From a virus, in the IMG/VR virus record IMGVR_UViG_3300031772_000096, positions 1 to 40,397 of that record: DNA of 40,397 nt; one strand, 5' to 3'. This document shows positions 693 to 12,254 of this stretch, piece by piece. The translations under genes and the position numbers were made by a program. Under the pieces are notes generated by a model. It was not told the origin of the DNA. It made no database searches and worked only from the letters and a program-made list of their open reading frames with translations. Within the stretch, counting starts at the first letter, position 1. The number at the start of each line of letters is the position of its first letter.

Positions 693-720
693 TTGACTTT
701 ACTTTCCTATATGATATACT
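693..720 (+). promoter_or_regulatory. strong sigma70-type promoter for the rightward early operon
   Basis: TTGACT (693..698), 16-bp spacer, TATACT (715..720). It sits in very AT-rich DNA, upstream of a ~155-nt leader and the first plus-strand gene at 885. The predicted transcription start is near 727. It is the best promoter candidate for the cluster 885..2295. Confidence 0.7.
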
Positions 721-737
721 TTGATTAGATAAACAAA

Positions 738-750
738 GGCTCTTTGACAA
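738..750 (+). promoter_or_regulatory. boxA-like antitermination element in the early leader
   Basis: GGCTCTTTGACAA closely matches the bacterial rRNA boxA (TGCTCTTTAACAA in Escherichia coli), which binds NusB/NusE. It lies about 15 nt after the predicted transcription start. A short hairpin-forming stretch CCCGCAAGGG with a GNRA-type loop (791..800) follows, roughly where a boxB would be. The resemblance is direct; antitermination is inference. Confidence 0.45.
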
Positions 751-884
751 GTCGGCAAGGCGAGAAGGCGAGTAGAAAAAGAAAAACAGACCCGCAAGGG
801 ATTTAAAACCGTAAGCCGAGAGAGTGCGAAGGGATAACATAATTTAAACAAGCAGTCAATAACAATTAAATAAGAGGTGATAAA

Positions 885-1271
885 ATGTTAAACCTTCAAT
901 CAATTTATTTTGGGCAAAAACATTTAACTTTTGATTTTCACGATATGCTAGTAATTAAATCTATTGCTAGGCTAGCCCATAAACACCAAGTCCAGGCAAC
1001 TAATGATTGTAATGGCGAAGGCTGGGTAAACAATCAACGTTATTTTAATGGAAAGATTGATGATTGGGCTAAGCGAGAATATGGGCAAGATGTTAAAAGT
1101 GCCTATATAGACAATACAGAGGAAACAATATTTATCAAAGAAATGGATAAAATAGAAACGAAAATTGAAAAATTCATTGAAAACAAGCCTTGTTTCAAGG
1201 TTGAATTTCAAGGCGACCCAAGAGGAAACACAGTCAAGTTATACTATGAAGGCGACTTCATAGAGTTATAA
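885..1271 (+). CDS. conserved phage hypothetical protein (DPRG motif)
   Basis: 128 residues, first gene of the rightward early operon. It has an excellent ribosome site: AAGAGGTGATAAA before ATG. The C-terminal segment KVEFQGDPRGNTVKLYY (about residues 104-120) resembles a recurrent phage protein family with a VEFQxDPRGxTVKL motif; no biochemical role is known to me. The N-terminal part has a Cys/Asn-rich stretch (NDCNGEGW). It is separated from the next gene by a hairpin and inverted repeat (1287..1317). Being first after the strongest early promoter suggests an immediate-early host-takeover role, which is inference. Confidence 0.8.
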   Translation: MLNLQSIYFGQKHLTFDFHDMLVIKSIARLAHKHQVQATNDCNGEGWVNNQRYFNGKIDDWAKREYGQDVKSAYIDNTEETIFIKEMDKIETKIEKFIENKPCFKVEFQGDPRGNTVKLYYEGDFIEL

Positions 1272-1286
1272 AATATCGCACTCAAA

Positions 1287-1317
1287 GCCGACTTGTTATC
1301 TTATGCTTTTGGCATAA
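1287..1317 (+). other. intergenic inverted-repeat arm and small hairpin after the first early gene
   Basis: GCCGACTTGT (1287..1296) is the exact reverse complement of ACAAGTCGGC in the leader (747..756, overlapping the boxA-like site). A local hairpin TTATGC-TTTTG-GCATAA follows at 1301..1317. It lacks a U-tract, so it looks more like a processing or stability element than a terminator. Confidence 0.4.
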
Positions 1318-1359
1318 CTGATGAAGCCGTATTTAGGCAGAAATAGAAAGGAGGTGAGA

Positions 1360-1515
1360 ATGAGACACAATAAAAAGTTATATTTAATTAAGGAAATAAT
1401 TAACCAGCGACTTGTGAAGGGTTGGGTAAAAGAAAATAGAATTATTGATGAAGCATTGATGTTAAATAAGCATACCCTTGATTTCTTACAAGATGTAAAA
1501 GATAGAAAAGCTTAA
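1360..1515 (+). CDS. small basic hypothetical protein
   Basis: 51 residues from ATG 1360, chosen because AAAGGAGGTGAG directly precedes it. An in-frame ATG at 1321 would add 13 residues but has no ribosome site and would bury this one. The sequence is helical and Lys/Arg-rich (MRHNKKLYLIKEIINQR..., then DEALMLNKHTLDFLQDVKDRKA). No family recognised. Second gene of the plus-strand early operon. Confidence 0.65.
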   Translation: MRHNKKLYLIKEIINQRLVKGWVKENRIIDEALMLNKHTLDFLQDVKDRKA

Positions 1516-1540
1516 TCTTATAACTTAAAGGAGGGGTAGA

Positions 1541-1741
1541 ATGGCTAAGTTCAAAGTAGGTGATAAAGTAAAATGGAACGACGGAAAATATCATCACGAT
1601 AATAAAAGAATTGATGTGGTAACAAGCATAACAAGTGATTATTTTGGGGATACACGATACTACACAAAGGAAATAAATAATAATCCCAATGAAAAGCCCA
1701 AAATAGGATTAGCTTTTGAAAGCTATCTTGTTTTAGCATAA
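1541..1741 (+). CDS. small SH3/KOW-like hypothetical protein
   Basis: 66 residues with AAAGGAGGGG before ATG. The N-terminus AKFKVGDKVKWNDGKY resembles the opening strand of small SH3-barrel or KOW-like domains (FxxGDxVxW), often found in nucleic-acid or protein-binding phage proteins. The C-terminal half contains FESYLVLA, consistent with a final strand. Function unknown. Part of the 885..2295 operon. Confidence 0.7.
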   Translation: MAKFKVGDKVKWNDGKYHHDNKRIDVVTSITSDYFGDTRYYTKEINNNPNEKPKIGLAFESYLVLA

Positions 1742-1762
1742 CCACTAACTAAAGGAGGAATT

Positions 1763-1957
1763 ATGAAGGAAATAGGAAAATATTTTATTGTAAGAATGGG
1801 ATGGCGTTGCAATATATGCGGGAAAATGTATTATACCAATAAAAAAAGAAAATCCCATTGTAACTCTGCCCCTTATATACAAAGCCAAGATTACCAATGC
1901 GAAATACCAAAAAGTTTATTCTTGAAAATTAAAAAACAAATACGGGGTGAAAAATGA
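1763..1957 (+). CDS. small zinc-finger-like protein
   Basis: 64 residues, AAAGGAGG before ATG. CNICGKMYYTNKKRKSHC gives Cys16-x2-Cys19 and a His/Cys pair about 12 residues on, with another Cys near residue 46, so one zinc site is plausible. The rest is basic, suggesting nucleic-acid binding. Its TGA overlaps the next ATG (ATGA at 1954..1957), indicating translational coupling. Confidence 0.7.
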   Translation: MKEIGKYFIVRMGWRCNICGKMYYTNKKRKSHCNSAPYIQSQDYQCEIPKSLFLKIKKQIRGEK

Positions 1958-2118
1958 CAAATGAATTAGCCATTAAAATACTGGGTTATATGAAAGACCA
2001 CGAGGAAAAGAATTTAATAATATTCGGTGATAAGAAACAAAATGCCGAAGCATTACAATATGGCATAGATGCCTTAATAAATGCACAAGGGGCAAGAGCC
2101 CAGGCAAAGGAGTCCTAA
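1954..2118 (+). CDS. small hypothetical protein
   Basis: 54 residues, MTNELAIKIL..., coupled to the upstream gene by an ATGA overlap. Predicted mostly helical, with an Ala/Gln-rich end (NAQGARAQAKES). No family recognised. TAA (2116..2118) abuts the next ATG, so the three final genes of this operon are probably translated as a coupled set. Confidence 0.65.
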   Translation: MTNELAIKILGYMKDHEEKNLIIFGDKKQNAEALQYGIDALINAQGARAQAKES

Positions 2119-2295
2119 ATGCAAATAAAGAAACGATTGACCTTTACCATTACCGTAACCAATGGTGAAGCCGAGAAAGTAAAGGAATTTAAAGACTCAA
2201 GACCTAACCTGACACACAGAGAAGTCTATTTAAGGGGTATGGAAGGAATTGAGGTTGATGAGCAAGTAACAGAGGATTTAAAGAATAAGGTTTAA
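2119..2295 (+). CDS. small hypothetical protein
   Basis: 58 residues, MQIKKRLTFTITVTNGEAEK..., starting directly after the previous stop. An N-terminal beta strand pair is followed by a charged helical part. No family recognised. It is the last rightward early gene and converges with the leftward gene ending at 2292; the two stop codons overlap, leaving no room for a separate terminator. Confidence 0.6.
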   Translation: MQIKKRLTFTITVTNGEAEKVKEFKDSRPNLTHREVYLRGMEGIEVDEQVTEDLKNKV

Positions 2296-2528
2296 TCCTC
2301 TTTCTTATACTGCCTATCTACCCATTTCTTACCGTATCTTAACTCCATAGCCCGCTTTGAAGCTAAATTCTCAATAAGATGAGAGTCAAAGGGAAAAGTC
2401 TTTCGTTTGTAATGTATATTAGAATATCCTTTCTTAGCTTGAAGTTTATTCAGATATTTTTCTAATTCTGGACAAATCTTTTTACAATCTTTTTTCTTTT
2501 CACAAGTTAAACAAAAAGCGTCTGCCAT
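2292..2528 (-). CDS. small Cys-rich protein, possible transcription-regulator type
   Basis: 78 residues with GGAGGAAAT before ATG. The N-terminus has four cysteines (CLTCEKKKDCKKICPELEKYL, residues 6-26 approximately), a pattern seen in small phage regulators where a zinc knot precedes a helical region; the rest (KRAMELRYGKKWVDRQYKKED) is basic. It is the distal end of the long leftward transcription unit and overlaps the rightward operon end. Specific function not known. Confidence 0.65.
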   Translation of the reverse strand: MADAFCLTCEKKKDCKKICPELEKYLNKLQAKKGYSNIHYKRKTFPFDSHLIENLASKRAMELRYGKKWVDRQYKKED

Positions 2529-2581
2529 ATTTCCTCCAATAGCAAACGCCTCTTTTAAATCAGTTTAATACCTTCTAAAAG

Positions 2582-2725
2582 TCAGCGTGTTATTATTACT
2601 TCTTTATCCCCAATCTCTATTATAATTTTAACAAGCACTCCGTCCTGCACCTCTGCGTGTTTAATGGGATAATTTTTTATTCCTGTTTCGGCTAAGCGTT
2701 TAATTATGTCTTTTTCTTCGGGCAT
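2582..2725 (-). CDS. small acidic hypothetical protein
   Basis: 47 residues: MPEEKDIIKRLAETGIKNYP..., ending KEVIITR. AAAGGAAG lies about ten bases upstream of ATG 2725. An amphipathic helix is followed by two beta strands. It overlaps the 3' end of the Cys-rich ORF 2699..2815 in another frame. No family recognised. Confidence 0.55.
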   Translation of the reverse strand: MPEEKDIIKRLAETGIKNYPIKHAEVQDGVLVKIIIEIGDKEVIITR

Positions 2726-2815
2726 AATAGTCTAACTTCCTTTTACAAAAACAACTATCCGTTCCTATCTTAATCGGGCATTTCTTTTTAAATGGACAGG
2801 GATACTTACTTTCCA
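2699..2815 (-). CDS. tiny Cys-rich protein
   Basis: 38 residues: MESKYPCPFKKKCPIKIGTD..., then SCFCKRKLDYY. The spacing C-x5-C-x8-C-x-C would suit one zinc ion. The ribosome site is weak and it overlaps the next gene by 27 nt, so the call rests mainly on the cysteine pattern, which resembles other tiny proteins in this genome. Confidence 0.4.
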
Positions 2816-2827
2816 TATATATACATT

Positions 2828-3100
2828 TTATCTTGGCACTCCATAAATCCCTGTATGGCGATGTTCTTTGAGTTCTTGGGCTAAATTATTGATTTGTACT
2901 TGGGCTAAATTATTGATTTGTAATTGTAATCCATCCCTTAAATTATCAATCTTCTTAAAACAACCCTCGGGATTTCCTCCCCAAAATCCAAACATTATAA
3001 CTATTTGCCAAAGTATAAATATAACCCATCCCACCGTAAAAAAAGTATCCCCTATTTCATTCTTCTTCGCCATTTCCTTTGTCTCCACTTTCTTTTGCAT
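2828..3100 (-). CDS. single-pass membrane protein with coiled-coil tail
   Basis: 90 residues from ATG 3100, chosen because GGGGTGAGG precedes it; a longer in-frame ORF to 3178 lacks a ribosome site. After a charged N-terminus there is one hydrophobic span (about residues 20-42, FFTVGWVIFILWQIVIMFGF), then a region with an 8-residue tandem duplication (VQINNLAQ twice) encoded by a 24-bp repeat. The topology resembles small phage holin/XhlA-like or inner-membrane proteins, but it is far from the lysis genes. Function unknown. Confidence 0.6.
   Translation of the reverse strand: MQKKVETKEMAKKNEIGDTFFTVGWVIFILWQIVIMFGFWGGNPEGCFKKIDNLRDGLQLQINNLAQVQINNLAQELKEHRHTGIYGVPR
2875..2922. repeat. 24-bp perfect tandem duplication inside the membrane-protein gene
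   Basis: Two adjacent identical 24-bp units (2875..2898 and 2899..2922), each starting CTTGGGCTAAATTATTG, encode repeated QINNLAQ on the minus strand. The identity at third positions indicates a very recent duplication or an assembly artefact. Confidence 0.9.
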
Positions 3101-3201
3101 ATCCTCACCCCAAAAACCCAAAACCAAAATCCTGCCAATAAGATAATCACTACACAAAGCAAAGTATTCGTATTCCAATGGTATCGTATCGCTTCAATCA
3201 A
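3052..3201 (-). CDS. possible overlapping membrane protein with TTG start
   Basis: 49 residues if TTG 3201 is used, with AGAGG about 14 bases upstream. It has a hydrophobic span (LLCVVIILLAGFWFWVFGV) followed by a strongly basic tail (RICKRKWRQRKWRRRMK), i.e. a positive-inside membrane anchor. It overlaps the first 49 nt of the next gene in another frame. No ATG exists between the preceding stop and the span, so the start is doubtful. Confidence 0.3.
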   Translation of the reverse strand: MIEAIRYHWNTNTLLCVVIILLAGFWFWVFGVRICKRKWRQRKWRRRMK

Positions 3202-3219
3202 CCTATTTATAAACGCCTC

Positions 3220-3294
3220 TTACAGTTTGGGGAGTTCGTAGTCAAACCAATCATCTAAATTTTGTGTCCAGCAAAACAAACAAGGAATTTTCAT
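3220..3294 (-). CDS. tiny Trp/Asp-rich peptide
   Basis: 24 residues, MKIPCLFCWTQNLDDWFDYE..., coupled to the upstream gene by ATGA (3291..3294). It contains a CxxC pair. Too short for family assignment; the overlap with a confident gene and the clean start support translation. Confidence 0.4.
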   Translation of the reverse strand: MKIPCLFCWTQNLDDWFDYELPKL

Positions 3295-3494
3295 TTCGCA
3301 CCCCTTATATAATACTCTGGGATAAGTTTTACCTTTCTTTCTCTTTGCAAATATATCAAATCCCTTGTTAAGGTGTATTTAGGAAGTCGGCTCAATCTTA
3401 ATAAGTTTTTGTAGGTGAGTTTCCTGGTGATTAACCTGTATAATCTGGCTCTGCGGAGTTGGACACCAAGTAAGACACCCTTGTTTTTTGTCAT
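3291..3494 (-). CDS. small winged-helix-like DNA-binding protein
   Basis: 67 residues from ATG 3494; AGAGGA is nine bases upstream. A longer in-frame ORF (to 3551) would be translated through micropeptide copy 1 in another frame and is less likely. The segment YKNLLRLSRLPKYTLTRDLI (about 28-47), then YLQRERKVKLIPEYY, reads like a recognition helix and wing. It is very basic. Plausibly a small transcriptional regulator; no specific family identified. Confidence 0.55.
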   Translation of the reverse strand: MTKNKGVLLGVQLRRARLYRLITRKLTYKNLLRLSRLPKYTLTRDLIYLQRERKVKLIPEYYIRGAK

Positions 3495-3496
3495 TC

Positions 3497-3565
3497 TCAC
3501 CATTCCTCTCTGGGACTTCTTGGATACGGACACAACATCACTAATAAGCACAAAAGGTAAGTCAT
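3497..3565 (-). CDS. hydrophobic micropeptide, copy 1 (diverged, extended)
   Basis: 22 codons: MTYLLCLLVMLC then PYPRSPREEW. The first 12 residues are identical to copy 2 (4907..4954). Here a C for T change removes the usual LYL end and stop, extending the frame to a TGA two bases before ATG 3494. It starts with an ATGA overlap of the upstream gene 3562..3786, as do the other two copies. Confidence 0.5.
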   Translation of the reverse strand: MTYLLCLLVMLCPYPRSPREEW

Positions 3566-3786
3566 TTTTTAGTTATCTTTGGGCGAATTTTTAATTTTGG
3601 TAATCCTTCAACACATTGAGTTTGATATTCATATCCTAATTCGACTAAAAGTCTAAAAATTATATCTTCTAATCTTGTAAGGCGAGTAAATATCTGTGGC
3701 AAGTATCCTGTGGAGCCGGTAGTTAAATCAGTATATAATGCACTTTGGATAACTCCTAATTTTTCTCTTAACTTTTTATCTTTCAT
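3562..3786 (-). CDS. small hypothetical protein, paralogue of 4951..5115
   Basis: 74 residues, MKDKKLREKLGVIQS..., with CTAAGGAGGG before ATG inside junction repeat 3789..3812. Its C-terminal half (ELGYEYQTQCVEGLPKLKI) matches ELGYEYQDSCREYLPKLNKI of the gene at 4951, and both start MKDKxLRxxLG, so they are paralogues. Function unknown; likely an amphipathic helical protein. The stop overlaps micropeptide copy 1. Confidence 0.7.
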   Translation of the reverse strand: MKDKKLREKLGVIQSALYTDLTTGSTGYLPQIFTRLTRLEDIIFRLLVELGYEYQTQCVEGLPKLKIRPKITKK

Positions 3787-3788
3787 TT

Positions 3789-3812
3789 TCCCTCCTTAGG
3801 TAGAGTGGGTTA
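3789..3812. repeat. gene-junction repeat type 1, copy A
   Basis: On the minus strand it reads stop TAA, then CCCACTCTACCTAAGGAGGG. The ribosome site of the downstream gene is part of the repeat. The same junction occurs at 5373..5400 and 7412..7440, and half of it at 5118..5138. Confidence 0.85.
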
Positions 3813-4151
3813 TTTCTGTTCTGTTGGTAATGGGTGCTTCCACGGAAACATATCTGTAACACTTTCTAAATTCACAAAGGCAGTTCCTACTGGCTCGACT
3901 TCTTTTAATTCCCCGTTTTTAATCGCTTGCATAAATCTACCGCTATCTGCTACCCAAGATGCTTTCTCTAATTGTAAAAAAGCACCTATCCGTTTTGTAA
4001 CCTTTCCGACTAAATGATATGTTACTGTGCGAAAGAAAAAGTTATGTCCAATAATATCATCATAAGAGGATATATCTATTTTTTCATCTTCTTGTAACTG
4101 ATTTTTAATTCTTTCATAGGTTTCATCTGAAATCTCTAACATTTTTGTCAT
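3810..4151 (-). CDS. conserved phage hypothetical protein (ASWVADSGRF family)
   Basis: 113 residues from ATG 4151 (AAAGGAG upstream). Motifs KASWVADSGRFMQAIKNG and VEPVGTAFVN, then MFPWKHPLPTEQK at the C-terminus, match a widespread phage protein type with an (A/E)SWVADTGRF core and a final HPLPxxQK; to my knowledge its function is undefined. The frame is open upstream through the hexanucleotide array (to 4364), so an N-terminal Val/Glu/Gly extension is possible but no start with a ribosome site was seen there. Confidence 0.75.
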   Translation of the reverse strand: MTKMLEISDETYERIKNQLQEDEKIDISSYDDIIGHNFFFRTVTYHLVGKVTKRIGAFLQLEKASWVADSGRFMQAIKNGELKEVEPVGTAFVNLESVTDMFPWKHPLPTEQK

Positions 4152-4179
4152 TTTATTCTCCTTTTGGTTGATAGTGTTT

Positions 4180-4371
4180 ACCACGACCCCGACCTCGACC
4201 TCGACCACGACCTCGACCTCGACCACGACCTCGACCCCGACCTCGACCTCGACCTCGACCCCGACCCCGCCCCCGACCACGACCCCGACCTCAACCTCGA
4301 CCTCGACCCCGACCACGACCCCGACCTCAACCTCGACCTCGACCCCGACCACGACCCCGACCACGACCTCG
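4180..4371. repeat. 32-unit GC-rich hexanucleotide array
   Basis: 192 bp made entirely of ACCnCG hexamers (ACCTCG, ACCCCG, ACCACG, with two ACCTCA and one CCCCCG). Units 17-22 and 23-28 form an identical 36-bp higher-order repeat. It lies between genes 4417..4707 and 3810..4151, is far more GC-rich than its surroundings, and keeps all frames open; minus-strand frames read as Val/Glu/Gly or as Arg/Ser repeats. A GTG at 4402 with GGGGGTGAGGG upstream could start a 74-residue RS-repeat protein ending at 4178. Confidence 0.95.
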
Positions 4372-4407
4372 AGTTTACATTATTACTTAATATTGCTATC
4401 ACATTCC

Positions 4408-4430
4408 CTCACCCCCTTAATCATTTACCT
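4408..4430. repeat. gene-junction repeat type 2, copy 1
   Basis: 23 bp identical to 5738..5760. The minus strand reads AGGTAAATGATTAAGG followed by GGGTGAG: it contains the TAA of gene 4417..4707 and a ribosome-binding sequence for whatever follows, here the hexanucleotide array. Confidence 0.85.
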
Positions 4431-4707
4431 CCATAAACTCTCTCTTAATTTGTTTTAGGGTTTCGTCTATAATTTTATCTCTATTTTCTATTGGGGCTTC
4501 AAAAAATAATTCAATACAAGTTTTAATTATTTCTCTCGTTTTTCCTCTCCAATTCACCAATTTAGCTATATTGCTAATTATCCAAACCTTATCGGCAATC
4601 GTCTTTGCTATATATAGACTTAAAAACTTATTATGGTCTATATCCTCAACAAGTTCTTTGGTTAGGTTTATTTTGCGAAGCCATTGAATAAATTGAATTT
4701 TAGTCAT
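4417..4707 (-). CDS. hypothetical protein
   Basis: 96 residues, predicted all-helical: MTKIQFIQWLRKINLTKELV..., ending IKREFMEVND. Starts with an ATGA overlap of the upstream gene (4704..4707). Charge is balanced, no cysteine motif, no membrane span. No family recognised. Its final codons lie in junction repeat type 2, so the 3' end may have been exchanged with another gene that used the same junction (the fossil at 5751..5760). Confidence 0.65.
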   Translation of the reverse strand: MTKIQFIQWLRKINLTKELVEDIDHNKFLSLYIAKTIADKVWIISNIAKLVNWRGKTREIIKTCIELFFEAPIENRDKIIDETLKQIKREFMEVND

Positions 4708-4874
4708 TTAATTACTCTAACAAAATTAACTGGTTCATCTCTATCAGCAATCTGTTCTCTTCTAATCTGATAACCACCTGTCCGTTTGTCTACTTTTAGT
4801 AAGAGAAAATGGATTTTACCATTTGTAATTCCACAGTGTATTCGGTCAATAGTGTTATCAAATTCAACAATCAT
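4704..4874 (-). CDS. small hypothetical protein
   Basis: 56 residues, MIVEFDNTIDRIHCGITNGK..., with GAGGGGGAAGAG before ATG 4874. Beta-rich at the start (GKIHFLLLKVDKRTGGYQIR), ending FVRVIK. ATGA overlap with the next gene. No family recognised. Confidence 0.65.
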   Translation of the reverse strand: MIVEFDNTIDRIHCGITNGKIHFLLLKVDKRTGGYQIRREQIADRDEPVNFVRVIK

Positions 4875-4906
4875 CTCTTCCCCCTCACTTCATCCACCCC
4901 AATTCT

Positions 4907-4954
4907 TCATAGATACAGACACAACATCACTAATAAGCACAAAAGGTAAGTCAT
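4907..4954 (-). CDS. hydrophobic micropeptide, copy 2
   Basis: 15 residues, MTYLLCLLVMLCLYL, starting in an ATGA overlap with the stop of 4951..5115. The same peptide with small changes is at 6995..7042 and, extended, at 3497..3565. Its own stop overlaps ATGAAG of a six-codon frame MKNWGG that is also kept in copy 3 as MKRWGG. The sequence would span about one membrane leaflet; a leader-peptide or membrane role is inference. Confidence 0.55.
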   Translation of the reverse strand: MTYLLCLLVMLCLYL

Positions 4955-5115
4955 TTTATTTTATTCAATTTAGGCAAATATTCTCTACAACTATCTTGAT
5001 ATTCGTAACCTAATTCTTTTAAAAGCACTTCAATCTGCCTTTCTATTTTATCTATTCTTTTTAGACTACAATATTTATCCCAGCCTAGCCATCTTCTTAA
5101 ATCTTTATCTTTCAT
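4951..5115 (-). CDS. small hypothetical protein, paralogue of 3562..3786
   Basis: 54 residues: MKDKDLRRWLGWDKYCSLKR..., ending ELGYEYQDSCREYLPKLNKI plus K. Shares start, core and end with the product of 3562..3786 but lacks about 20 residues in the middle. CCTAAGGAGGGATA precedes ATG. The stop overlaps micropeptide copy 2. Function unknown. Confidence 0.7.
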   Translation of the reverse strand: MKDKDLRRWLGWDKYCSLKRIDKIERQIEVLLKELGYEYQDSCREYLPKLNKIK

Positions 5116-5117
5116 TA

Positions 5118-5138
5118 TCCCTCCTTAGGTAGGTCATT
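5118..5138. repeat. hybrid gene junction (micropeptide start joined to ribosome-site junction)
   Basis: The minus strand reads AATGACCTACCTAAGGAGGG: the left half equals the start of micropeptide copy 3 (AATGACCTACCTA) and the right half equals junction repeat type 1 (CTACCTAAGGAGGG). The shared core is CTACCTA. This looks like a recombination scar between the two repeat types. Confidence 0.7.
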
Positions 5139-5140
5139 TG

Positions 5141-5368
5141 TTATATCATATTTGCCTCTTGGGGTGGAGGCACATCTTTTAATGTTAATTTACTACCCTG
5201 CCGTCTTGTTCTACCATACCAATTTTCTCTTGCGACCACAGATTTATCAAAAGCAATTAAGCAATCGGTTAAATATTCAGCAAGAATAAAATCGGGAGTA
5301 TCGGAATTATTCTCTTGGGAATTTCTATTTATCAAGTGTTCCAAACCTTTTCTAAATTCAGTAATCAT
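5141..5368 (-). CDS. conserved phage protein (TPDFILAEYL family)
   Basis: 75 residues; CTAAGGAGGGATGAG before ATG. The stretch LINRNSQENNSDTPDFILAE, followed by YLTDCLIAFDKSV and RENWYG, is a hallmark of a small protein family common in tailed phages and prophages; its role is unknown to me. Full length for the family. It is followed by the hybrid junction at 5118..5138 and preceded by junction copy C. Confidence 0.8.
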   Translation of the reverse strand: MITEFRKGLEHLINRNSQENNSDTPDFILAEYLTDCLIAFDKSVVARENWYGRTRRQGSKLTLKDVPPPQEANMI

Positions 5369-5372
5369 CTCA

Positions 5373-5400
5373 TCCCTCCTTAGGTAGAGTGGGTTAGTAA
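5373..5400. repeat. gene-junction repeat type 1, copy C
   Basis: Same junction as 3789..3812 and 7412..7440. Here the upstream frame reads into it, so the YopX-family protein ends LLTHST with its TAA inside CTACCTAAGGAGGG; the gene 7419..7826 ends with the same six residues for the same reason. Confidence 0.85.
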
Positions 5401-5736
5401 GTCTGGGTTCTCATAGATGTTGCCGATGATTTCCATTGTCTCTGAACCTAACCTGCCGATACTACATCCTGAACCAATCTCTGATTTTTTCTTAAATTCT
5501 CCTTCATTAAAATAAACTTCATCTACACCAAATTCATTTTTAACAATGTCCCCTTCACAAATCTCCTGACCATTCTTGTCTTTAAGACCTGTGAACTCAT
5601 AAAATCTTTCTCCATTAAGGCAGAAAGCGAGATACAGCCCTCTTTGTTCTTCACTCCAAACTTGACCTAATGTAAAATATGCCCACCTCTTTTGCCATTT
5701 ACTCCACACCCTAAACTTTATTGTGCGATTTTCCAT
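5380..5736 (-). CDS. YopX family phage protein
   Basis: 118 residues from ATG 5736, directly after AAGGGGGTGAGT (part of junction repeat type 2). The order of motifs fits the YopX family: IKFRVW near the start, then FYEFTGLKDKNGQEICEGDI, then IIGNIYENPDLL near the end. YopX proteins are common in phages and are thought to form ring-like oligomers; function is unclear. The last residues (LTHST) derive from junction repeat C, so the original terminus has probably been replaced. Confidence 0.88.
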   Translation of the reverse strand: MENRTIKFRVWSKWQKRWAYFTLGQVWSEEQRGLYLAFCLNGERFYEFTGLKDKNGQEICEGDIVKNEFGVDEVYFNEGEFKKKSEIGSGCSIGRLGSETMEIIGNIYENPDLLTHST

Positions 5737-5737
5737 A

Positions 5738-5760
5738 CTCACCCCCTTAATCATTTACCT
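5738..5760. repeat. gene-junction repeat type 2, copy 2
   Basis: 23 bp identical to 4408..4430. In this copy no full-length gene ends in it; the frame reading in (QERYATAIIQVND then TAA) has no start and may be the fossil 3' end of a displaced gene. It provides the ribosome site of the YopX gene. Confidence 0.85.
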
Positions 5761-5794
5761 GAATAATTGCGGTTGCATATCTCTCTTGCTTTTG

Positions 5795-5959
5795 TTAATC
5801 AATATCAATAATATTTCTTATTACTCCTTTAATATCTTTTAATAACTCTCGGCATTTTTTAATATTTTGCGAATTGTCGGAATAGATAATTGTTTCATTT
5901 ATACGATGTTTACATTGCTTTCGCATCTCTTTACACCTTTCACAATAATACCAACCCAT
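5795..5959 (-). CDS. small zinc-finger-like protein
   Basis: 54 residues: MGWYYCERCKEMRKQCKHRI..., AAAGGA before ATG 5959. Cys6, Cys9, Cys16 and His18 form a plausible zinc site; the rest is an Ile/Lys-rich helix. Overlaps the 3' end of the methyltransferase gene by 20 nt. No family recognised. Confidence 0.6.
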   Translation of the reverse strand: MGWYYCERCKEMRKQCKHRINETIIYSDNSQNIKKCRELLKDIKGVIRNIIDID

Positions 5960-6590
5960 CGTTTTCCTTTCTTCTTTTCATTTCATTAAAAATGTGTAAG
6001 CCTATTCTTGGTAATACACAGTTTCTAAGCACTTGTCTTTTATTGGGCAATTTAAAATCTTTTAATTCGTGAAGCGTTAAAAACTCTGGTATCTGTGCTT
6101 CCCGGATTATGGCCTTGCGTTGTTTTTCTTTTGACGCTTGCCTGTTCATAGTGCCTATCTGGTAATCTACTTTAATATCACTTATCTTAAAATTCGCCCA
6201 GAAGTAATGTCGCCCTACTACTTGGGGTGGGTAAAGCGGGGCGTAATAACTTTTGGTATTTTCTACACAATATTTACCCTTAAAGAAATGCTTTAGTAAT
6301 ATAATCTCCTGCCATAAAGATTGGTCTGGATAACGGATAATCCCTTGCCCTTTTAAGAAATGACTACAAACACTATGACTCGGACAAGGCGGGCTACTCC
6401 ATATAAACTCAAACTCCTTAAAGTGGTCTAACAAATACTGGTGTGCATCCGCCACGATAACCTTATCCTGCAAAAAGAAGTCGGAATAAATTTTGGCTAT
6501 CTGGGGATTATTCTCAATGGCAGTTACCTCAACATCTGTCCAAAGTTTACGATTACCTCCGATGCCTGCGTAGAGATTAAGGACTTTCAT
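5940..6590 (-). CDS. DNA cytosine-5 methyltransferase
   Basis: 216 residues. Transfers a methyl group from S-adenosylmethionine to cytosine C5. Motif I NLYAGIGGNRKLW (residues 5-17) for cofactor binding, motif IV SSPPCPSHS with catalytic Cys69, motif VI YCVENTK (Glu110), and GRHYFWANF after it are all visible. It is short compared with restriction-type enzymes (300-400 residues), matching compact phage Dcm-like proteins that act alone to protect phage DNA from host restriction. It is coupled by ATGA to a cytidine deaminase. No cognate endonuclease is seen. The exact target sequence cannot be read from the sequence. Confidence 0.92.
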   Translation of the reverse strand: MKVLNLYAGIGGNRKLWTDVEVTAIENNPQIAKIYSDFFLQDKVIVADAHQYLLDHFKEFEFIWSSPPCPSHSVCSHFLKGQGIIRYPDQSLWQEIILLKHFFKGKYCVENTKSYYAPLYPPQVVGRHYFWANFKISDIKVDYQIGTMNRQASKEKQRKAIIREAQIPEFLTLHELKDFKLPNKRQVLRNCVLPRIGLHIFNEMKRRKENDGLVLL

Positions 6591-6952
6591 AGTTTTGGAT
6601 AATTAGGATATAAGTCTGTTATTAAATATTCTTTTTCGTCTTTGCCATTACTTGTAAGTAAAAGGGTAACCCTACTACTAAACATCATCAACCAATCAAG
6701 ACAAGCACCACAAGGAGCAAAGTCAACACCTTTCGCATAAATAGCAACTCTACTTATCACTTTATCACTATTAGAAATCCTCGAAATAGCACTAACTTCT
6801 GCGTGTAAAGATGTTTGCCAAGAACCCTCAATATTCCAACCTAAAATTATTTCATCATCATCTAATTCAATAGCACAACCTACTTTTATACCACTTCTAG
6901 CGGGAAGTGCATTTTTACTTGCTAACCTCGCTTCATTCAATAAATCTTTCAT
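6587..6952 (-). CDS. cytidine deaminase-like zinc enzyme
   Basis: 121 residues, near the usual size of homotetrameric cytidine deaminases. Catalytic HAE at His50-Ala-Glu52 (TSLHAEVSAISR) and PCGAC at 80-84 give zinc ligands His50, Cys81 and Cys84 and proton shuttle Glu52. The PCGAC form favours cytidine/deoxycytidine deaminase over dCMP deaminase, which usually has PCxxC with longer flanks. It would convert (deoxy)cytidine to (deoxy)uridine and feed thymidylate synthesis. GGGGGTAAAAG precedes ATG. Its stop overlaps the methyltransferase start, so the two cytosine-acting enzymes are made together. Confidence 0.88.
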   Translation of the reverse strand: MKDLLNEARLASKNALPARSGIKVGCAIELDDDEIILGWNIEGSWQTSLHAEVSAISRISNSDKVISRVAIYAKGVDFAPCGACLDWLMMFSSRVTLLLTSNGKDEKEYLITDLYPNYPKL

Positions 6953-6994
6953 CTTTTACCCCCTAACTATCTTCAATTTATCCACCCCATCTCT

Positions 6995-7042
6995 TCATAG
7001 ATACAGACACAACATCACTGCCATGCATAATAGGTAGGTCAT
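6995..7042 (-). CDS. hydrophobic micropeptide, copy 3
   Basis: 15 residues, MTYLLCMAVMLCLYL. Compared with copy 2, three codons differ silently (ACC/ACT, CTA/CTT, TTA/TTG) and two change one hydrophobic residue for another, which suggests selection on the peptide. It starts in an ATGA overlap with the stop of 7039..7197. Followed by the six-codon frame MKRWGG. Confidence 0.55.
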   Translation of the reverse strand: MTYLLCMAVMLCLYL

Positions 7043-7197
7043 TGTTTAGTTCCTAAAGTATTGTCCACTATTTTTTTACATTCAGTTACACCTTTTAAAT
7101 ATCCTTCGGAAAATCCAATCTTGCGACCTTCATCAAATGCGGTCTTATAAGTCATCATCTGTGCATCAACCATATTTTTTAAAAAATCATCTTTCAT
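7039..7197 (-). CDS. small helical protein (MKD... gene before micropeptide 3)
   Basis: 52 residues: MKDDFLKNMVDAQMMTYKTA..., ending IVDNTLGTKQ. Mostly helical (EGRKIGFSEGYLKGVTECKK). Starts in an ATGA overlap with the zinc-ribbon gene upstream. Not clearly similar to the paralogues at 3562 and 4951 beyond the MKD start, but it occupies the same position directly before the micropeptide. Function unknown. Confidence 0.6.
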   Translation of the reverse strand: MKDDFLKNMVDAQMMTYKTAFDEGRKIGFSEGYLKGVTECKKIVDNTLGTKQ

Positions 7198-7406
7198 TTT
7201 AATAACCTCCCATCTTCGCCTTCTTCTCTGTCAATTTCTTCTTGGGTGAATCCCGATGTATGTTCTCCACACTTGGGGCAAAAATCATTGTCAGGGTAAT
7301 CTGGCATTGTGGCTTGACAACAAACACTATAATAAGTGTTATGACAAATTGGACAACCCTCTTTCTGAACTACATGTCCTTTATTACATCTACCTTCTTT
7401 AGTCAT
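7194..7406 (-). CDS. small double zinc-ribbon protein
   Basis: 70 residues with GGAGGGAAGGAG before ATG. Cys pairs CPIC (18-21) and CPKC (43-46), plus Cys29/Cys30 and Cys7/His10, suggest one or two treble-clef or ribbon zinc sites. The C-terminus is acidic. Probably binds nucleic acid or protein; no family recognised. It follows junction repeat D. Confidence 0.7.
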   Translation of the reverse strand: MTKEGRCNKGHVVQKEGCPICHNTYYSVCCQATMPDYPDNDFCPKCGEHTSGFTQEEIDREEGEDGRLLK

Positions 7407-7411
7407 CTCCT

Positions 7412-7440
7412 TCCCTCCTTAGGTAGAGTGGGTTAGTAAA
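7412..7440. repeat. gene-junction repeat type 1, copy D
   Basis: Same junction as 3789..3812 and 5373..5400, with extended identity to copy C (TTACTAACCCACTC on the minus strand). The TAA of 7419..7826 lies inside it, directly followed by GGAGGG of the next ribosome site. Confidence 0.85.
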
Positions 7441-7826
7441 TTGTTCTTTTTTAAATAGAGCCACATTAGGGCGAGGGCATTGGGTAGAGATTTATCTGTT
7501 TCGGCAGTAAAAGTATGCGGATGATAATAGCAAACATCATTCGTATTCTCGTGCAACCTAATCTCTAAAACTGCCCTACAATTATCTTTTAATATTGTTT
7601 TTGGCAACTCCTCCAAAATCTCTGTGGCGAGAGGAGCGGGATATTCTGTATCATCCAACATAACGGGAGTATCTACAATTCTATATTCACCCTTAAAATT
7701 TTCTGCTGGTTTCCCAAAGGTTAAAACGCCATAATAATTATCGCTCCATTGATAAATTGTAGGCTCTTTCCATCCAGCTTCCTTCAAATCCTTACTAATC
7801 TCTAAACTTACGCAATGTTTATCCAT
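7419..7826 (-). CDS. conserved phage hypothetical protein
   Basis: 135 residues. CVSLEISKDLKEAGWKEPTI and YPAPLATEILEELP, then LPNALALMWLYLKKN, match a pattern shared by many phage and prophage proteins (a CVxxxxAxxLKxxGW start, APxxxELLExLP middle, and a final AxAxxWxxL helix); function unknown to me. The final LLTHST comes from junction repeat D, as in the YopX gene. Start ATG 7826, with GAAAGGAAAAC upstream. Confidence 0.75.
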   Translation of the reverse strand: MDKHCVSLEISKDLKEAGWKEPTIYQWSDNYYGVLTFGKPAENFKGEYRIVDTPVMLDDTEYPAPLATEILEELPKTILKDNCRAVLEIRLHENTNDVCYYHPHTFTAETDKSLPNALALMWLYLKKNNLLTHST

Positions 7827-7846
7827 TTAGTTTTCCTTTCGTGGGG

Positions 7847-7945
7847 TTAAAGTTTATAGCAAATTATCCATAATGCCATTGCTATATTTACTAGTAAACC
7901 TAATGTTATACCTACCCAAATCTGTATATCATATTCTCTAATCAC
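7847..7945 (-). CDS. single-span membrane microprotein (GTG start)
   Basis: 32 residues starting with GTG that overlaps the upstream stop as GTGA (7942..7945), with AAGGAGGGTGGG directly upstream. One hydrophobic helix (IWVGITLGLLVNIAMALWII) fills most of the peptide, flanked by IREYDIQ and CYKL. Likely an inner-membrane microprotein; function unknown. Confidence 0.6.
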   Translation of the reverse strand: MIREYDIQIWVGITLGLLVNIAMALWIICYKL

Positions 7946-8313
7946 CCCACCCTCCTTTTCATCTCTTGAATTGCTGAGTTGAAGCCATTGACATAATTTG
8001 AACAATGACCATTTACACCTGTATCGTCTGCTACTAACTCCTCCGGCAGTATCCCCAGATACTTCTCCTTATAGAGTGCGTCTAATTGGGTGCGGGCTTG
8101 AATTTTATGTATCTCTGTTATTGCAGAAGTAACACACCCATCAGCTTTATAAGTGTTCATCAACACTTTCTCCAATTCATCCAACACCTCTTTCACTGTT
8201 TTAAGAACAGAACTATAAATCTCAGGGGATAAAATCCTACCAGTTATATCGTGCTTATAAAATTCCTGTTGCCAATTCTTTCTTGTCCATCCCACCAGAC
8301 TTTTCTTCTTCAT
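7942..8313 (-). CDS. hypothetical phage protein
   Basis: 123 residues, GGAGGTGTAAG before ATG. Helical throughout, with a C-terminal GFNSAIQEMKRRVG that resembles the end of a recurrent small phage protein type (NGxNxAIxxMK). No enzyme motif. A nine-codon frame (8315..8344) with its own good ribosome site lies just upstream and ends two bases before this ATG, and may act as a leader. Confidence 0.65.
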   Translation of the reverse strand: MKKKSLVGWTRKNWQQEFYKHDITGRILSPEIYSSVLKTVKEVLDELEKVLMNTYKADGCVTSAITEIHKIQARTQLDALYKEKYLGILPEELVADDTGVNGHCSNYVNGFNSAIQEMKRRVG

Positions 8314-8344
8314 CTTACACCTCCGAGATAATTTGTTTGTCCAT

Positions 8345-8361
8345 TATTTAACCTCCTTGCT
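8345..8361. repeat. direct repeat flanking the structured-RNA/ORF cassette, copy 1
   Basis: TATTTAACCTCCTTGCT occurs here and at 8500..8516. On the minus strand it is AGCAAGGAGGTTAAATA, i.e. a ribosome site. The two copies bracket the GC-rich cassette at 8361..8495, again suggesting insertion or exchange of a unit at a repeated ribosome-site junction. Confidence 0.8.
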
Positions 8362-8495
8362 TACTTGGCGGTCAGGGTAGGATTTCCACCTACTGGCTCA
8401 TTATTTTGTCGTAGCCGTTCACTTCTGGCTTGGCTAACGCTTAAAGGTTGCGAGTCTTTAAGTCCCCTGCGTTCTTCACGCCACCTAACCGCCAT
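8361..8495 (-). CDS. possible 44-residue protein overlapping the structured RNA
   Basis: ATG 8495 lies 11 bases after AAGGAGG. The product MAVRWREERRGLKDSQPLSV..., ending VGGNPTLTAK, is basic and low in hydrophobics, with no family likeness. It covers the same bases as the candidate structured RNA below. The repeated ribosome site favours translation; the strong pairing favours RNA. Both could hold. Confidence 0.4.
   Translation of the reverse strand: MAVRWREERRGLKDSQPLSVSQARSERLRQNNEPVGGNPTLTAK
8367..8493 (-). ncRNA. candidate structured RNA with five stems
   Basis: A GC-rich 127-nt stretch in AT-rich DNA. Stem P1 pairs GGCGGTTAGG (minus strand, 8493..8484) with CCTGACCGCC (8376..8367), ten pairs with one G.U. 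Inside, in minus-strand order: P2 GCGT/ACGC (8481..8469), P3 CTTAAAG/CTTTAAG (8462..8440), P4 TAGCC/GGCTA plus CG/CG around one bulge (8439..8410), P5 GTAGG/CCTAC (8393..8377). The layout is tRNA-like with an added arm, but no T-loop consensus or sound anticodon arm exists. It lies directly downstream of an HNH/NinG-like gene. Confidence 0.45.
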
Positions 8496-8499
8496 AGTC

Positions 8500-8516
8500 T
8501 ATTTAACCTCCTTGCT
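8500..8516. repeat. direct repeat flanking the structured-RNA/ORF cassette, copy 2
   Basis: Identical to 8345..8361. Supplies the candidate ribosome site for the 44-residue ORF 8361..8495 and lies just after the stop of the HNH gene (8522). Confidence 0.8.
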
Positions 8517-8521
8517 AAAGA

Positions 8522-8875
8522 TTACCTTATTTCCTCTAAGACTTTTAATTTAATCTCTAAATCTTCTATTGTTGGTTTATAAATCAAGTTGTGTGCCTCT
8601 TTGAGCAAATTATATTTATCTTCTCCCAAAAGTTTTCTTACAAATTCCGTGAATAGAATAGGTTGCTTGTGAGCGAAGTTCATATGGCAATCTGGGCAAA
8701 GTGCTAATAAATTATCTAACAACCATCTCGTATTTAAGTAGGTTCTCCCGAAGATGTGGCAACATTGGACATTTTTCTTTCCGCACCTTTGACATTTTCC
8801 TCTTGCCCTGACCACATCTGACACCGCCTTGTCTAATTTTCTCGTTAGTCCCGTTTTGGTAATTTTACGAGCCAT
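8522..8875 (-). CDS. HNH / NinG-like recombination nuclease
   Basis: 117 residues. Zinc-binding CQRCGKKNVQCCHIFGR (28-44) followed by STR-like NTRWLLDNLLALCPDCHMNF fits the NinG/Rap and HNH fold: Cys pair, catalytic His in CCHIFGR, Asn in LDN, and a second CPDC-H site. NinG (Rap) of phage lambda is a structure-specific endonuclease in RecA-dependent recombination. The N-terminus is basic, the C-terminus a long helix (EDLEIKLKVLEEIR). It could also be a plain HNH homing-type nuclease. Confidence 0.75.
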   Translation of the reverse strand: MARKITKTGLTRKLDKAVSDVVRARGKCQRCGKKNVQCCHIFGRTYLNTRWLLDNLLALCPDCHMNFAHKQPILFTEFVRKLLGEDKYNLLKEAHNLIYKPTIEDLEIKLKVLEEIR

Positions 8876-8889
8876 ATTCGCTTTCTGAT

Positions 8890-9057
8890 TTAATGGTCTT
8901 TGTGGTTTTTCTCATATAATTTATCCATCCAAACTTTGTGTCTCGCATACATTTTCTCTTGGCAAGGAATACATACTTGTCTTTGTTTCCAAATAGGATG
9001 CCATCCGTGTAAATCTTTTTTCCCACAAAACTTGCAAGTAACATAAAAATCAAACAT
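8890..9057 (-). CDS. small zinc-ribbon protein
   Basis: 55 residues, MFDFYVTCKFCGKKDLHGWH... with CxxC at 8-11 and CIPC at 29-32, a clean four-cysteine zinc site, ending in a basic helix (MYARHKVWMDKLYEKNHKDH). This frame is preferred over an overlapping 62-residue frame lacking the paired cysteines. Overlaps the upstream gene by 8 nt. Function unknown; nucleic-acid binding is likely. Confidence 0.65.
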   Translation of the reverse strand: MFDFYVTCKFCGKKDLHGWHPIWKQRQVCIPCQEKMYARHKVWMDKLYEKNHKDH

Positions 9058-9229
9058 TTACTTTCTTAAAAATTATAGGTATCCAAGGAGATGCAATTAC
9101 ATCCGCCCTTTCTATTCTTTCACATCTTTCACAATATCGTGTAGTAGTCCAAAAAAGTAAATCAAACATTGGGTCTCCACAACCTTTGCGTTTATATTTC
9201 CATCTATGAAAACCTAATTTACACAACAT
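9050..9229 (-). CDS. DUF1660-like small zinc protein
   Basis: 59 residues. Begins MLCKLGFHRWKYKRKGCGD and later RYCERCERIERAD, the arrangement of small phage proteins of the DUF1660 type (CKLxGHxW ... CxxC). Four cysteines and a histidine could hold zinc. Its ATG overlaps the upstream TAA as TAATG. A distant relative lies at 39448..39582 (LCRLFGHREG ... CSRCKR). Confidence 0.65.
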   Translation of the reverse strand: MLCKLGFHRWKYKRKGCGDPMFDLLFWTTTRYCERCERIERADVIASPWIPIIFKKVNV

Positions 9230-9444
9230 TACAAATGACTCCCCTCTGCCCTGATAATAATTTTTAGGGAATTTATTATTTCTTTTTGGAGTTTTAATTT
9301 AGCTTTATTCTCTGCGTGCCTACCAATAGCGTCATTAAGAACCCCACCGCTTACTATCAATTCAGCGGTCAATCTTTCTACTTCATTGGTAGCTGTAATT
9401 AGTTTTTGCATTTGAGTTGAAGCATCATCGGTATGGTCTAACAT
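9229..9444 (-). CDS. helical hypothetical protein
   Basis: 71 residues, MLDHTDDASTQMQKLITATN..., then LTAELIVSGGVLNDAIGRHA and a Lys/Leu/Ile helix. Predicted helical hairpin or coiled coil. No cysteine motif or membrane span. Linked to the next gene by TAATG. No family recognised. Confidence 0.6.
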   Translation of the reverse strand: MLDHTDDASTQMQKLITATNEVERLTAELIVSGGVLNDAIGRHAENKAKLKLQKEIINSLKIIIRAEGSHL

Positions 9445-9454
9445 TTAGGACTCC

Positions 9455-9631
9455 CTATTCTGCGTTTGTGAATTCAAATATAATTTCATCTAAGCTTCTT
9501 CCCATACTCATAACACTGTCAGGTTTCCAAGTTAATCTAATATTGCTTAATCTCATATAAGGATTTTTATTATATAATTCCCTAATTAACCCCCTGATTG
9601 TTTCTATTTGTTTTTCCATTTCATCTTTCAT
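9455..9631 (-). CDS. small hypothetical protein
   Basis: 58 residues: MKDEMEKQIETIRGLIRELY..., ending SLDEIIFEFTNAE. GGGGGAAGGG precedes ATG. The helical first half and beta second half could form a small alpha/beta domain. Overlaps the upstream gene by 11 nt. No family recognised. Confidence 0.6.
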   Translation of the reverse strand: MKDEMEKQIETIRGLIRELYNKNPYMRLSNIRLTWKPDSVMSMGRSLDEIIFEFTNAE

Positions 9632-9788
9632 CCCTTCCCCCTTCCCAATCCGGTTTCTTATAAATTCCTAACCTCTCTAAAGCCAAAACTCCTTCTTGTA
9701 TATCCCTTAGTTCTTTCTTGGTCAGTTTTGATTTCTTGACCCATTGGGCTTTTCTGGTAATTGATTTCCATTCTTGCTTGGTAGGCAT
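9621..9788 (-). CDS. small basic hypothetical protein
   Basis: 55 residues: MPTKQEWKSITRKAQWVKKS..., ending PDWEGGRDER. Lys/Trp-rich and helical, with KKSKLTKKELRDIQEGVLAL in the middle, likely to bind nucleic acid. Starts at TAATG overlapping the HNH gene stop, so it is coupled to that nuclease. No family recognised. Confidence 0.6.
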   Translation of the reverse strand: MPTKQEWKSITRKAQWVKKSKLTKKELRDIQEGVLALERLGIYKKPDWEGGRDER

Positions 9789-10276
9789 TAGGTATTTGGT
9801 TGATTTATAAAATCGTTCATTTCGCCTAATATAATTGCTTCTTCTTTTTCAATCATTTCTTTTAAAAGCCATTCGTGTATTTGGGCATGGCAAAGCTCAC
9901 AAAGACGAATAAGGTTACATTGCTTGTTAATACCCCCGTTCTTGACTAAAACTATATGGTGGGTAAGGGTAGGTTTATCACCACAAACCCTGCAAGGGAT
10001 ATTGGTCATCCTGTGGCTTGGTTTACGGTTTTTAAGATAACTAAACCAATAATGGTATTTCTGGTAAGAGGCTTCTTTTAATAAATCTAATCTATCTTGG
10101 GAATTTGCATTATTGAATTTGCCCCAAAAGTCGTTCAAATACTTTTTAATGATTTTCTTAGCAAGGGATTTCCGCTGGATATGGTTCTTACGGACAGATT
10201 TCCAAGAAGAATAACAACCGCCCTTGCCTTTAGCAGAGTTTTTATGGAGGTGTTTTTTGAAGTTATAAGTAGGCAT
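9788..10276 (-). CDS. HNH endonuclease
   Basis: 162 residues. The HNH core is at about 94-140: CRVCGDKPTLTHHIVLVKNG, then NKQCNLIRLCELCHAQIHEW, with zinc ligands in CxxC and CxxCH, catalytic His in THHI and Asn in CNLIRLC. The N-terminal ~90 residues are very basic (Lys/His/Asn) and probably bind DNA. Located next to the DnaA-box cluster. Could be a homing-type nuclease or a nicking enzyme used in replication or packaging. The start ATG 10276 was chosen as the first Met of the ORF. Confidence 0.85.
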   Translation of the reverse strand: MPTYNFKKHLHKNSAKGKGGCYSSWKSVRKNHIQRKSLAKKIIKKYLNDFWGKFNNANSQDRLDLLKEASYQKYHYWFSYLKNRKPSHRMTNIPCRVCGDKPTLTHHIVLVKNGGINKQCNLIRLCELCHAQIHEWLLKEMIEKEEAIILGEMNDFINQPNT

Positions 10277-10281
10277 TTAGA

Positions 10282-10412
10282 CTATGCACAGGTTATTAAC
10301 AGGTTATCCACAAGCGAACCCATTGAAACTACGAGGTTTAAGTATTTTTCTATTGAGTTATCCACAAGTTTCTATTATCTTTATTATCTTTAGTATCTAT
10401 TATCTTTATTAT
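10282..10412. promoter_or_regulatory. DnaA-box cluster with AT-rich repeats (candidate replication origin)
   Basis: Two perfect DnaA boxes TTATCCACA (10304..10312 and 10358..10366), one near match TTATTAACA (10293..10301) and one CTATGCACA (10282..10290) sit in a 130-bp gene-free stretch. They are followed by an AT-rich tract of repeated TATTATCTTTA units (10371..10410), a possible unwinding element. The gene just upstream encodes an O-like replication protein. The boxes match the consensus exactly; origin activity is inference. Confidence 0.6.
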
Positions 10413-10414
10413 AT

Positions 10415-12207: not shown

Positions 12208-12219
12208 TTTATTTTTTCC

Positions 12220-12248: not shown

Positions 12249-12254
12249 TGAAAA

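What the first reader, a model, noticed from the sequence alone, without database searches (positions are those of the whole stretch)
3789..7440. Gene-junction repeats and a hybrid junction point to cassette recombination
Junction type 1 (stop plus CCCACTCTACCTAAGGAGGG) recurs at 3789, 5373 and 7412 between unrelated genes; two different upstream proteins even share the terminal residues LLTHST because their frames run into it. At 5118..5138 the start of the micropeptide (AATGACCTACCTA) is fused to the second half of the junction at their shared CTACCTA core. This suggests that short homologies at ribosome sites serve as exchange points for small genes.
Basis: partly seen in the sequence, partly recalled or inferred. 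Interest (0 to 1): 0.65.

Follow-up and report, generated by a model that had tools for sequence, protein, structure and literature searches.

The report
Reused gene-junction linkers in a phage
A bacterial virus reuses a few short stop-and-start linker sequences between unrelated small genes, and comparisons with other viruses suggest that genes are swapped or duplicated between such linkers.

Summary
The 20-mer CCCACTCTACCTAAGGAGGG occurs three times (expected 0), its half CTACCTAAGGAGGGA a fourth time in the hybrid, always as ribosome site of a small minus-strand gene. With two further junction units (B, a 71-nt micro-ORF; C, 23 nt) it recurs in the cyclic order A-B-C-A-(hybrid)-B-C-A-B between mostly unrelated genes. 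Element A belongs to the genome, not to the genes: homologues of both LLTHST proteins mostly end naturally at or near "LL" and none of 18 readable ones has THST; the one full-length relative has a probable A variant between other genes. Two unrelated phages show the same anatomy with other sequences: unrelated proteins ending in EAQDE or EVKP tails before a repeated ribosome site. Recombination and duplication at reused junctions, followed by gene replacement, is the best explanation, but no breakpoint could be mapped in this lineage, and one homology block (the methylase) starts at an ATG without A. A regulatory role like that of cluster K Start-Associated Sequences is the main rival. New variant of a known kind.

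The parts
3788..3812 (-). Junction A, copy 1 (in-frame stop TAA, linker, Shine-Dalgarno), between gene 3810-4154 and gene 3562-3786
   Evidence: exact repeat
5373..5400 (-). Junction A, copy 2 (28 nt); codes LLTHST* of the YopX-like protein and is the ribosome site of gene 5141-5368
7412..7439 (-). Junction A, copy 3 (28 nt); codes LLTHST* of protein 7419-7826 and is the ribosome site of gene 7194-7406
5117..5138 (-). Hybrid junction: micro-ORF start (AATGACCTACCTA) joined at CTACCTA to the second half of A
3496..3566 (-). Junction unit B, copy 1 (71 nt; micro-ORF frame extended in this copy)
4885..4955 (-). Junction unit B, copy 2 (micro-ORF MTYLLCLLVMLCLYL*)
6973..7043 (-). Junction unit B, copy 3 (micro-ORF MTYLLCMAVMLCLYL*)
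4408..4430 (-). Junction unit C, copy 1 (AGGTAAATGATTAAGGGGGTGAG), followed by ATG TGA and a hexamer array
5738..5760 (-). Junction unit C, copy 2, ribosome site of the YopX-like gene
8345..8361 (-). Junction unit D, copy 1 (AGCAAGGAGGTTAAATA), before a 9-codon ORF and gene 7942-8313
8500..8516 (-). Junction unit D, copy 2
7419..7826 (-). Upstream gene of A copy 3; native family end is ...KKNNLL
7194..7406 (-). Downstream gene of A copy 3 (70 aa, Cys-rich; no PHROG match)
5380..5736 (-). YopX-like gene (PF09643), upstream gene of A copy 2 (listed ORF starts at 5754, probable start 5736)
5141..5368 (-). Downstream gene of A copy 2 (phrog_18819); its last 56 bp are shared with an otherwise different gene of G011
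4951..5115 (-). Small gene after the hybrid junction; paralogue of 3562-3786
3562..3786 (-). Small gene after A copy 1; paralogue of 4951-5115
3810..4151 (-). Upstream gene of A copy 1 (113 aa, ATG at 4151); no family
5940..6590 (-). C-5 cytosine methylase-like gene (match to the first part of PF00145), shared with relative G006 where A-like junctions also lie on both sides

Best explanation
The repeats are reused, genome-specific translation junctions (end of upstream gene, stop, strong Shine-Dalgarno, start). They spread and stay alike because recombination and duplication between them copies, deletes or replaces the small genes in between while leaving every reading frame intact. Shown: copies, positions, independence from the genes, shared C-terminal tails, cyclic order, a probable variant in one relative, the same anatomy in two unrelated phages. 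Inferred: that recombination at the junctions (rather than selection on them alone) made the pattern; that the hybrid arose by deletion or exchange at the 7-nt CTACCTA; that a phage or host annealing recombinase acted.
For: Three exact copies, expected 0. The non-overlapping minus-strand exact repeats of 17 nt or more all lie in 2.9-8.5 kb; A, C and D are ribosome sites. The repeat begins at the native end of the upstream proteins: 10 of 14 readable YopX homologues have LL there and 0 of 14 have THST; in the 7419 family 3 of 4 homologues have KKN(N/G)LL, one ends exactly there, 0 of 4 have THST. 0 of 79 stretches holding a homologue of downstream gene 5141-5368 carry ACCTAA(0-3)GGAGG on the gene strand. 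G006 has ACCCACTAACCTAACAGGAGGGA and two partial copies around its methylase with other genes; a gapped A pattern hits only 4 stretches of viral contigs, one being G006; G006 has the best A alignment of 133 loci. G012: 4 of 5 junction-abutting proteins carry EAQDE, the fifth EVRDE; G013: 3 of 3 end EVKP; no similarity apart from the tails. G011: an otherwise different gene shares the last 56 bp (86%) of gene 5141-5368, up to its stop. Cyclic order: 2 of 560 arrangements of AAABBBCC are periodic.
Against: No close relative covers 3-8 kb, so no gain or loss breakpoint is mapped to A. The methylase homology with G006 starts at its own ATG without A. B, C and D were not found in relatives. The match of A with its variant needs two gaps and is only one point above the best reversed-A control (14 against 13). 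Only one relative, G006, has both the structural genes and the early region. The G011 case has one edge inside the coding region.
Confidence: 0.55

Rival explanations
1. Start-associated regulatory element: the repeats are functional translation signals (for example coupled re-initiation, or a site for a protein or small RNA) held identical by selection; gene turnover around them is independent.
For: Position at the ribosome site, strong Shine-Dalgarno, non-structural region only, as in cluster K SAS (PMC3203893, passages) and Microbacterium cluster EF SAS (PMC7302621, passages). A can fold a -6 kcal/mol hairpin that pairs the Shine-Dalgarno, with the stop of the LLTHST genes in the loop. In six K2 genomes SAS counts are the same (8 each) at similar places.
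Against: The hairpin is no better than shuffles (z -0.61 to 0.41 for the three A copies; rank 6-8 of 64 starts). Only four A-type sites in the genome. Identity extends by different amounts on different sides, into the upstream gene (A) or the downstream start (G012).
Confidence: 0.25
2. Simple block duplication: an A-gene-B-gene-C-gene block was duplicated in tandem and the genes diverged beyond recognition while the junctions stayed.
For: Cyclic order A-B-C-A-(hybrid)-B-C-A-B (2 of 560 arrangements periodic); 4951-5115 and 3562-3786 are paralogues in equivalent places before B.
Against: Other genes in equivalent places show no similarity or belong to different families (YopX against 3810-4151; phrog_18819 against 7194-7406); 7039-7197 is not a detectable paralogue. 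Paralogue bodies are 69% identical in aligned bases while a 40-nt stretch of B behind them is 100% identical.
Confidence: 0.15
3. Chance similarity of strong ribosome sites.
For: GGAGGG sites occur before other genes of this genome too.
Against: 24-28 nt identity of which only about 8 nt is Shine-Dalgarno; expected 0.
Confidence: 0.02

Closest known systems
Start-Associated Sequences (SAS) of cluster K mycobacteriophages and Microbacterium cluster EF phages
   Same: Short conserved repeats at the ribosome site of unrelated small genes, confined to the non-structural half, mostly one orientation, function unknown.
   Different: Other sequence; four copies here against 11-19; here the repeat also codes the last residues of upstream proteins; several junction types in cyclic order.
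3'-end repeats at gain/loss sites in mycobacteriophages (Island3 genes 67/68 and Brujita; LRRHood 29-bp repeats; PMC3029335)
   Same: Unrelated neighbouring genes share C-terminal residues because a short DNA repeat covers their ends; gain or loss between repeats inferred.
   Different: There two copies and a close relative with one copy show the event; here three or four copies and no close relative.
Boundary sequences of lambdoid phages
   Same: Short shared sequences at module borders proposed as recombination sites (recalled, and cited as such in PMC3029335).
   Different: Here the repeats lie within one genome between single small genes and coincide with ribosome sites.
PeSL regulatory cassettes of T4-type phages
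   Same: Repeated expression signals between genes proposed to mediate shuffling (recalled; titles seen in a reference list).
   Different: PeSLs are promoter plus stem-loop (title, recalled detail); here promoter-like and terminator-like sites in 2900-8600 are no more frequent than in shuffles.

Membership tests
Start-Associated Sequences | Conserved repeat at the ribosome site within a few nt of start codons | tested here: met
Start-Associated Sequences | Confined to non-structural genes, one orientation, before unrelated genes | tested here: met
Start-Associated Sequences | 11-19 copies of a 13-bp motif, GGGATAGGAGCCC | tested here: not met
   A has 3 full copies and 1 half copy of a different sequence
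Start-Associated Sequences | Kept at orthologous genes in relatives | tested here: inconclusive
   No gene bordering A keeps A in a relative; the 7419 homologue in G006 has none
Boundary-sequence or 3'-end repeat recombination | Short repeat at gene ends, shared C-terminal residues of unrelated proteins | tested here: met
Boundary-sequence or 3'-end repeat recombination | Gain or loss breakpoints in close relatives fall in the repeat | tested here: inconclusive
   G001 (96%) does not reach the region; G006 is too distant
PeSL cassettes of T4-type phages | Early promoter and stem-loop in the repeated unit | tested here: not met
   16 promoter-like sites (shuffles 18.2) and 4 terminator-like sites (3.4); no listed site lies on an A copy

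The most novel reading that the evidence does not exclude
Some phages carry a genome-specific standard linker: any incoming small gene is cut at the last codon of its fold and given the local tail, stop, ribosome site and start, so the linkers form a self-homogenising array of interchangeable slots, like the scar of a cloning standard, each lineage with its own sequence.
Probability: 0.2. Interest if true: 0.75.

Novelty: new variant of a known kind. Interest (0 to 1): 0.48.

Why it matters
How phages keep single-gene mosaicism without breaking neighbouring genes is an old question: short boundary sequences, or random recombination plus selection. Junctions that code a shared protein tail, stop, ribosome site and start, homogeneous within a genome and different between genomes, are a testable substrate for the first view and can be searched for simply by looking for unrelated proteins with identical C-termini. 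They also explain odd shared tails in annotation.

Tried and rejected
Exact 20-mer in viral contigs: no hit. Degenerate micro-ORF pattern in viral contigs: no hit. Megablast of window 1-20000 in phages: no match; distant search of 3000-8600 gave only short hits, the listed ones mostly in YopX or methyltransferase genes. Major capsid profile in genome contigs: no relative. A pattern in genome contigs: 2 stretches, about what chance gives by my estimate, not pursued. The three other viral hits of the A pattern (L139, L140, L141) show no further similarity to the window beyond short stretches; L140 is a real-looking start site. Rfam at E up to 1: nothing; tRNAs: none. Promoter and terminator scan: chance level. 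Hairpin of A: not better than shuffles. Relatives of G012 and G013 in phages: none. A reading of unit B in another frame as the coding one was dropped because the micro-ORF frame shows three synonymous changes between copies 2 and 3 (my reading of the sequences). Assembly artefact was considered and set aside by reasoning only: repeats of 20-71 nt are short compared with usual assembly overlaps.
Full report
What the window is. The window is a virus record of 40,397 bases with identical 127-nt ends, so a circular assembly. It encodes a terminase, portal and major head protein on the minus strand, and is a tailed phage of unknown host; the nearest named capsids are 27-33% identical, in phages of Myxococcus, Bradyrhizobium, Stenotrophomonas and others. 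The finding lies among small minus-strand genes at 3-8 kb.

The observation. Element A, CCCACTCTACCTAAGGAGGG, occurs exactly three times and nowhere else within three mismatches; shuffles gave none. Extended identity is 28, 25 and 24 nt for the three pairs. In each case it is the ribosome site of the next gene. For genes 5380-5754 and 7419-7826 the repeat codes the last residues, LLTHST, and the stop is inside the repeat; for 3810-4151 the stop directly precedes it. I also found unit C (23 nt, 5738 and 4408) and unit D (17 nt, 8500 and 8345), both ribosome sites, and unit B (71 nt, three copies) which holds a micro-ORF. The non-overlapping minus-strand exact repeats of at least 17 nt all lie in 2.9-8.5 kb. 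In transcription order the units run A7412, B7043, C5760, A5373, hybrid 5118, B4955, C4430, A3789, B3566. Leaving out the hybrid, 2 of the 560 arrangements of AAABBBCC are periodic. This test was chosen after seeing the order.

Native ends of the upstream genes. Of 15 viral loci with a YopX homologue, 14 have a readable end: 10 of 14 have LL at the place of the window's LL, the rest LM, LV or LI, and none has THST. Of four homologues of 7419-7826 (G006, G012, L135, L136), three have KKNNLL or KKNGLL, L135 stops exactly there, and none has THST. The repeat therefore starts at the native end of two unrelated proteins. Downstream, none of 79 stretches holding homologues of 5141-5368 carries ACCTAA(0-3)GGAGG on the gene's strand. 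The element belongs to the genome, not to the genes.

The relative G006. G001 is 96% identical but its alignment covers only about 25.0-40.3 kb and does not reach the region. G006 (39.4 kb, about 73% in structural DNA) shares in the early region only the methylase, a metallophosphoesterase, one weaker gene and a 34% homologue of 7419-7826 in a different order. It has ACCCACTAACCTAACAGGAGGGA at about 34365, a 19-nt repeat TAACAGGAGGGAAATATGA at 34858 and 36276, and ACCTAACAGGAGGGAA at 34372 and 36273, on both sides of the methylase. A pattern allowing two gaps hit 4 stretches in viral contigs, one of them G006, and 2 in genome contigs; the pattern was written after seeing both sequences. In a gapped alignment of A with 133 loci (1.87 Mb; left out beforehand: window copies, hits of the A pattern, TM4, Mx8 and the K2 phages) G006 ranked first with 14.0; G001 followed with 12.5; the reversed-A control reached 13.0. 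I call this probable homology. Copies are alike within each genome and differ between genomes. Against the exchange model, the methylase homology starts at its ATG with no A there in either genome.

The same anatomy elsewhere. A scan of 119 stretches for repeats of 16 nt or more at ribosome sites found 15 with at least one pair; L137 (8), the window (7, one of them in the hexamer array) and L089 (6) lead; stretches of one record are partly counted apart. L137 is part of G012, which holds a homologue of 7419-7826: seven copies of AGGAGGCTCAGGATGA at up to two mismatches; five proteins run into them, four carrying EAQDE and one EVRDE. In G013 (L089) three proteins end EVKP at AGAGGTGAAACCATGA. 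Without the last eight residues none of these proteins resemble each other (best E 0.79). The same script found the SAS of TM4 and nothing in Mx8 or in the first 40 kb of G011. In G011 an otherwise different gene shares the last 56 bp (86%) of gene 5141-5368 up to the stop, so one edge is at the gene end and the other inside it.

A test in a known system. In six cluster K2 phages 20 of 114 pairwise breakpoints (not independent) lie within 60 nt of a SAS, against 4% of the sequence (measured on Milly); by my own count about 3 of 9 distinct events. BoostSeason and Findley share the sequence upstream and through the SAS and then carry different genes from the ATG; ZoeJ and Findley part at the left edge of the extended SAS. 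So start-associated repeats are exchange points sometimes, not usually. SAS numbers are equal (8) in all six, which favours function.

Literature. PMC3203893 (passages): SAS, function unknown, role in translation suggested. PMC12699233 (passages): survey of 188 cluster K phages, role unverified. PMC7302621 (passages): SAS-like and other repeated motifs in Microbacterium phages, some kept although the region differs. PMC3029335 (passages and section 13): Island3/Brujita and LRRHood cases and the statement that boundary sequences cannot be found at most mosaic borders. PMC3945230 (abstract and outline): Rad52-like recombinases drive homology-based mosaicism. PMC4503421 (reference list only): cites the T4 PeSL papers, which are not held. 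My searches showed no report of unrelated phage proteins sharing C-termini through a repeated ribosome-site junction beyond Island3; these searches are narrow and I read few of the papers listed.

Mechanism. Best reading: recombination and duplication between reused junctions, with replacement of the genes between them. A carries tail, stop, Shine-Dalgarno and start, so a crossover anywhere in it keeps both frames; this follows from the sequence. G006 encodes a RecT-like annealing protein (phrog_561, E 1e-22); no window ORF matched that place. The hybrid is best read as a deletion or exchange at the 7-nt CTACCTA. A functional role in translational coupling is possible and not exclusive: A can form a -6 kcal/mol hairpin over the Shine-Dalgarno, but no better than shuffles.

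Noticed in passing
window 4180-4372: GC-rich array of about 32 hexamers (ACCTCG, ACCCCG, ACCACG) in an AT-rich region, between junction C (followed by ATG TGA) and gene 3810-4151; it may replace a lost gene.
   Followed up: partly
window 3496-3566, 4885-4955, 6973-7043: Hydrophobic 15-residue micro-ORF MTYLL..VMLCLYL starting at or just after the stop of a small gene; copies 2 and 3 differ by three synonymous and two other codons, which suggests that it is translated. Not found elsewhere.
   Followed up: partly
window 8315-8361: After junction D a 9-codon ORF (MDKQIISEV*) whose end overlaps the ribosome site of gene 7942-8313.
   Followed up: no
window 37927-37940: CTAACTAAGGAGGA, a near relative of the A core, before a small ORF (37818-37922) upstream of the portal gene; kept in G001.
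   Followed up: partly
window 20574-21001: 168-bp repeat, 2.6 copies, inside the large gene 19439-21562.
   Followed up: no
L110 14891-15361 and L147 6496-7050: Related genes (53% over 47 residues) in G006, directly after an A-like junction, and in G012; the G006 copy has AEWEKA-type repeats.
   Followed up: no
window 5141-5368 and L112 7340-7597: Different proteins sharing the tail KLTLKDVPPPQEANMI in two phages, 86% identical over 56 bp.
   Followed up: partly
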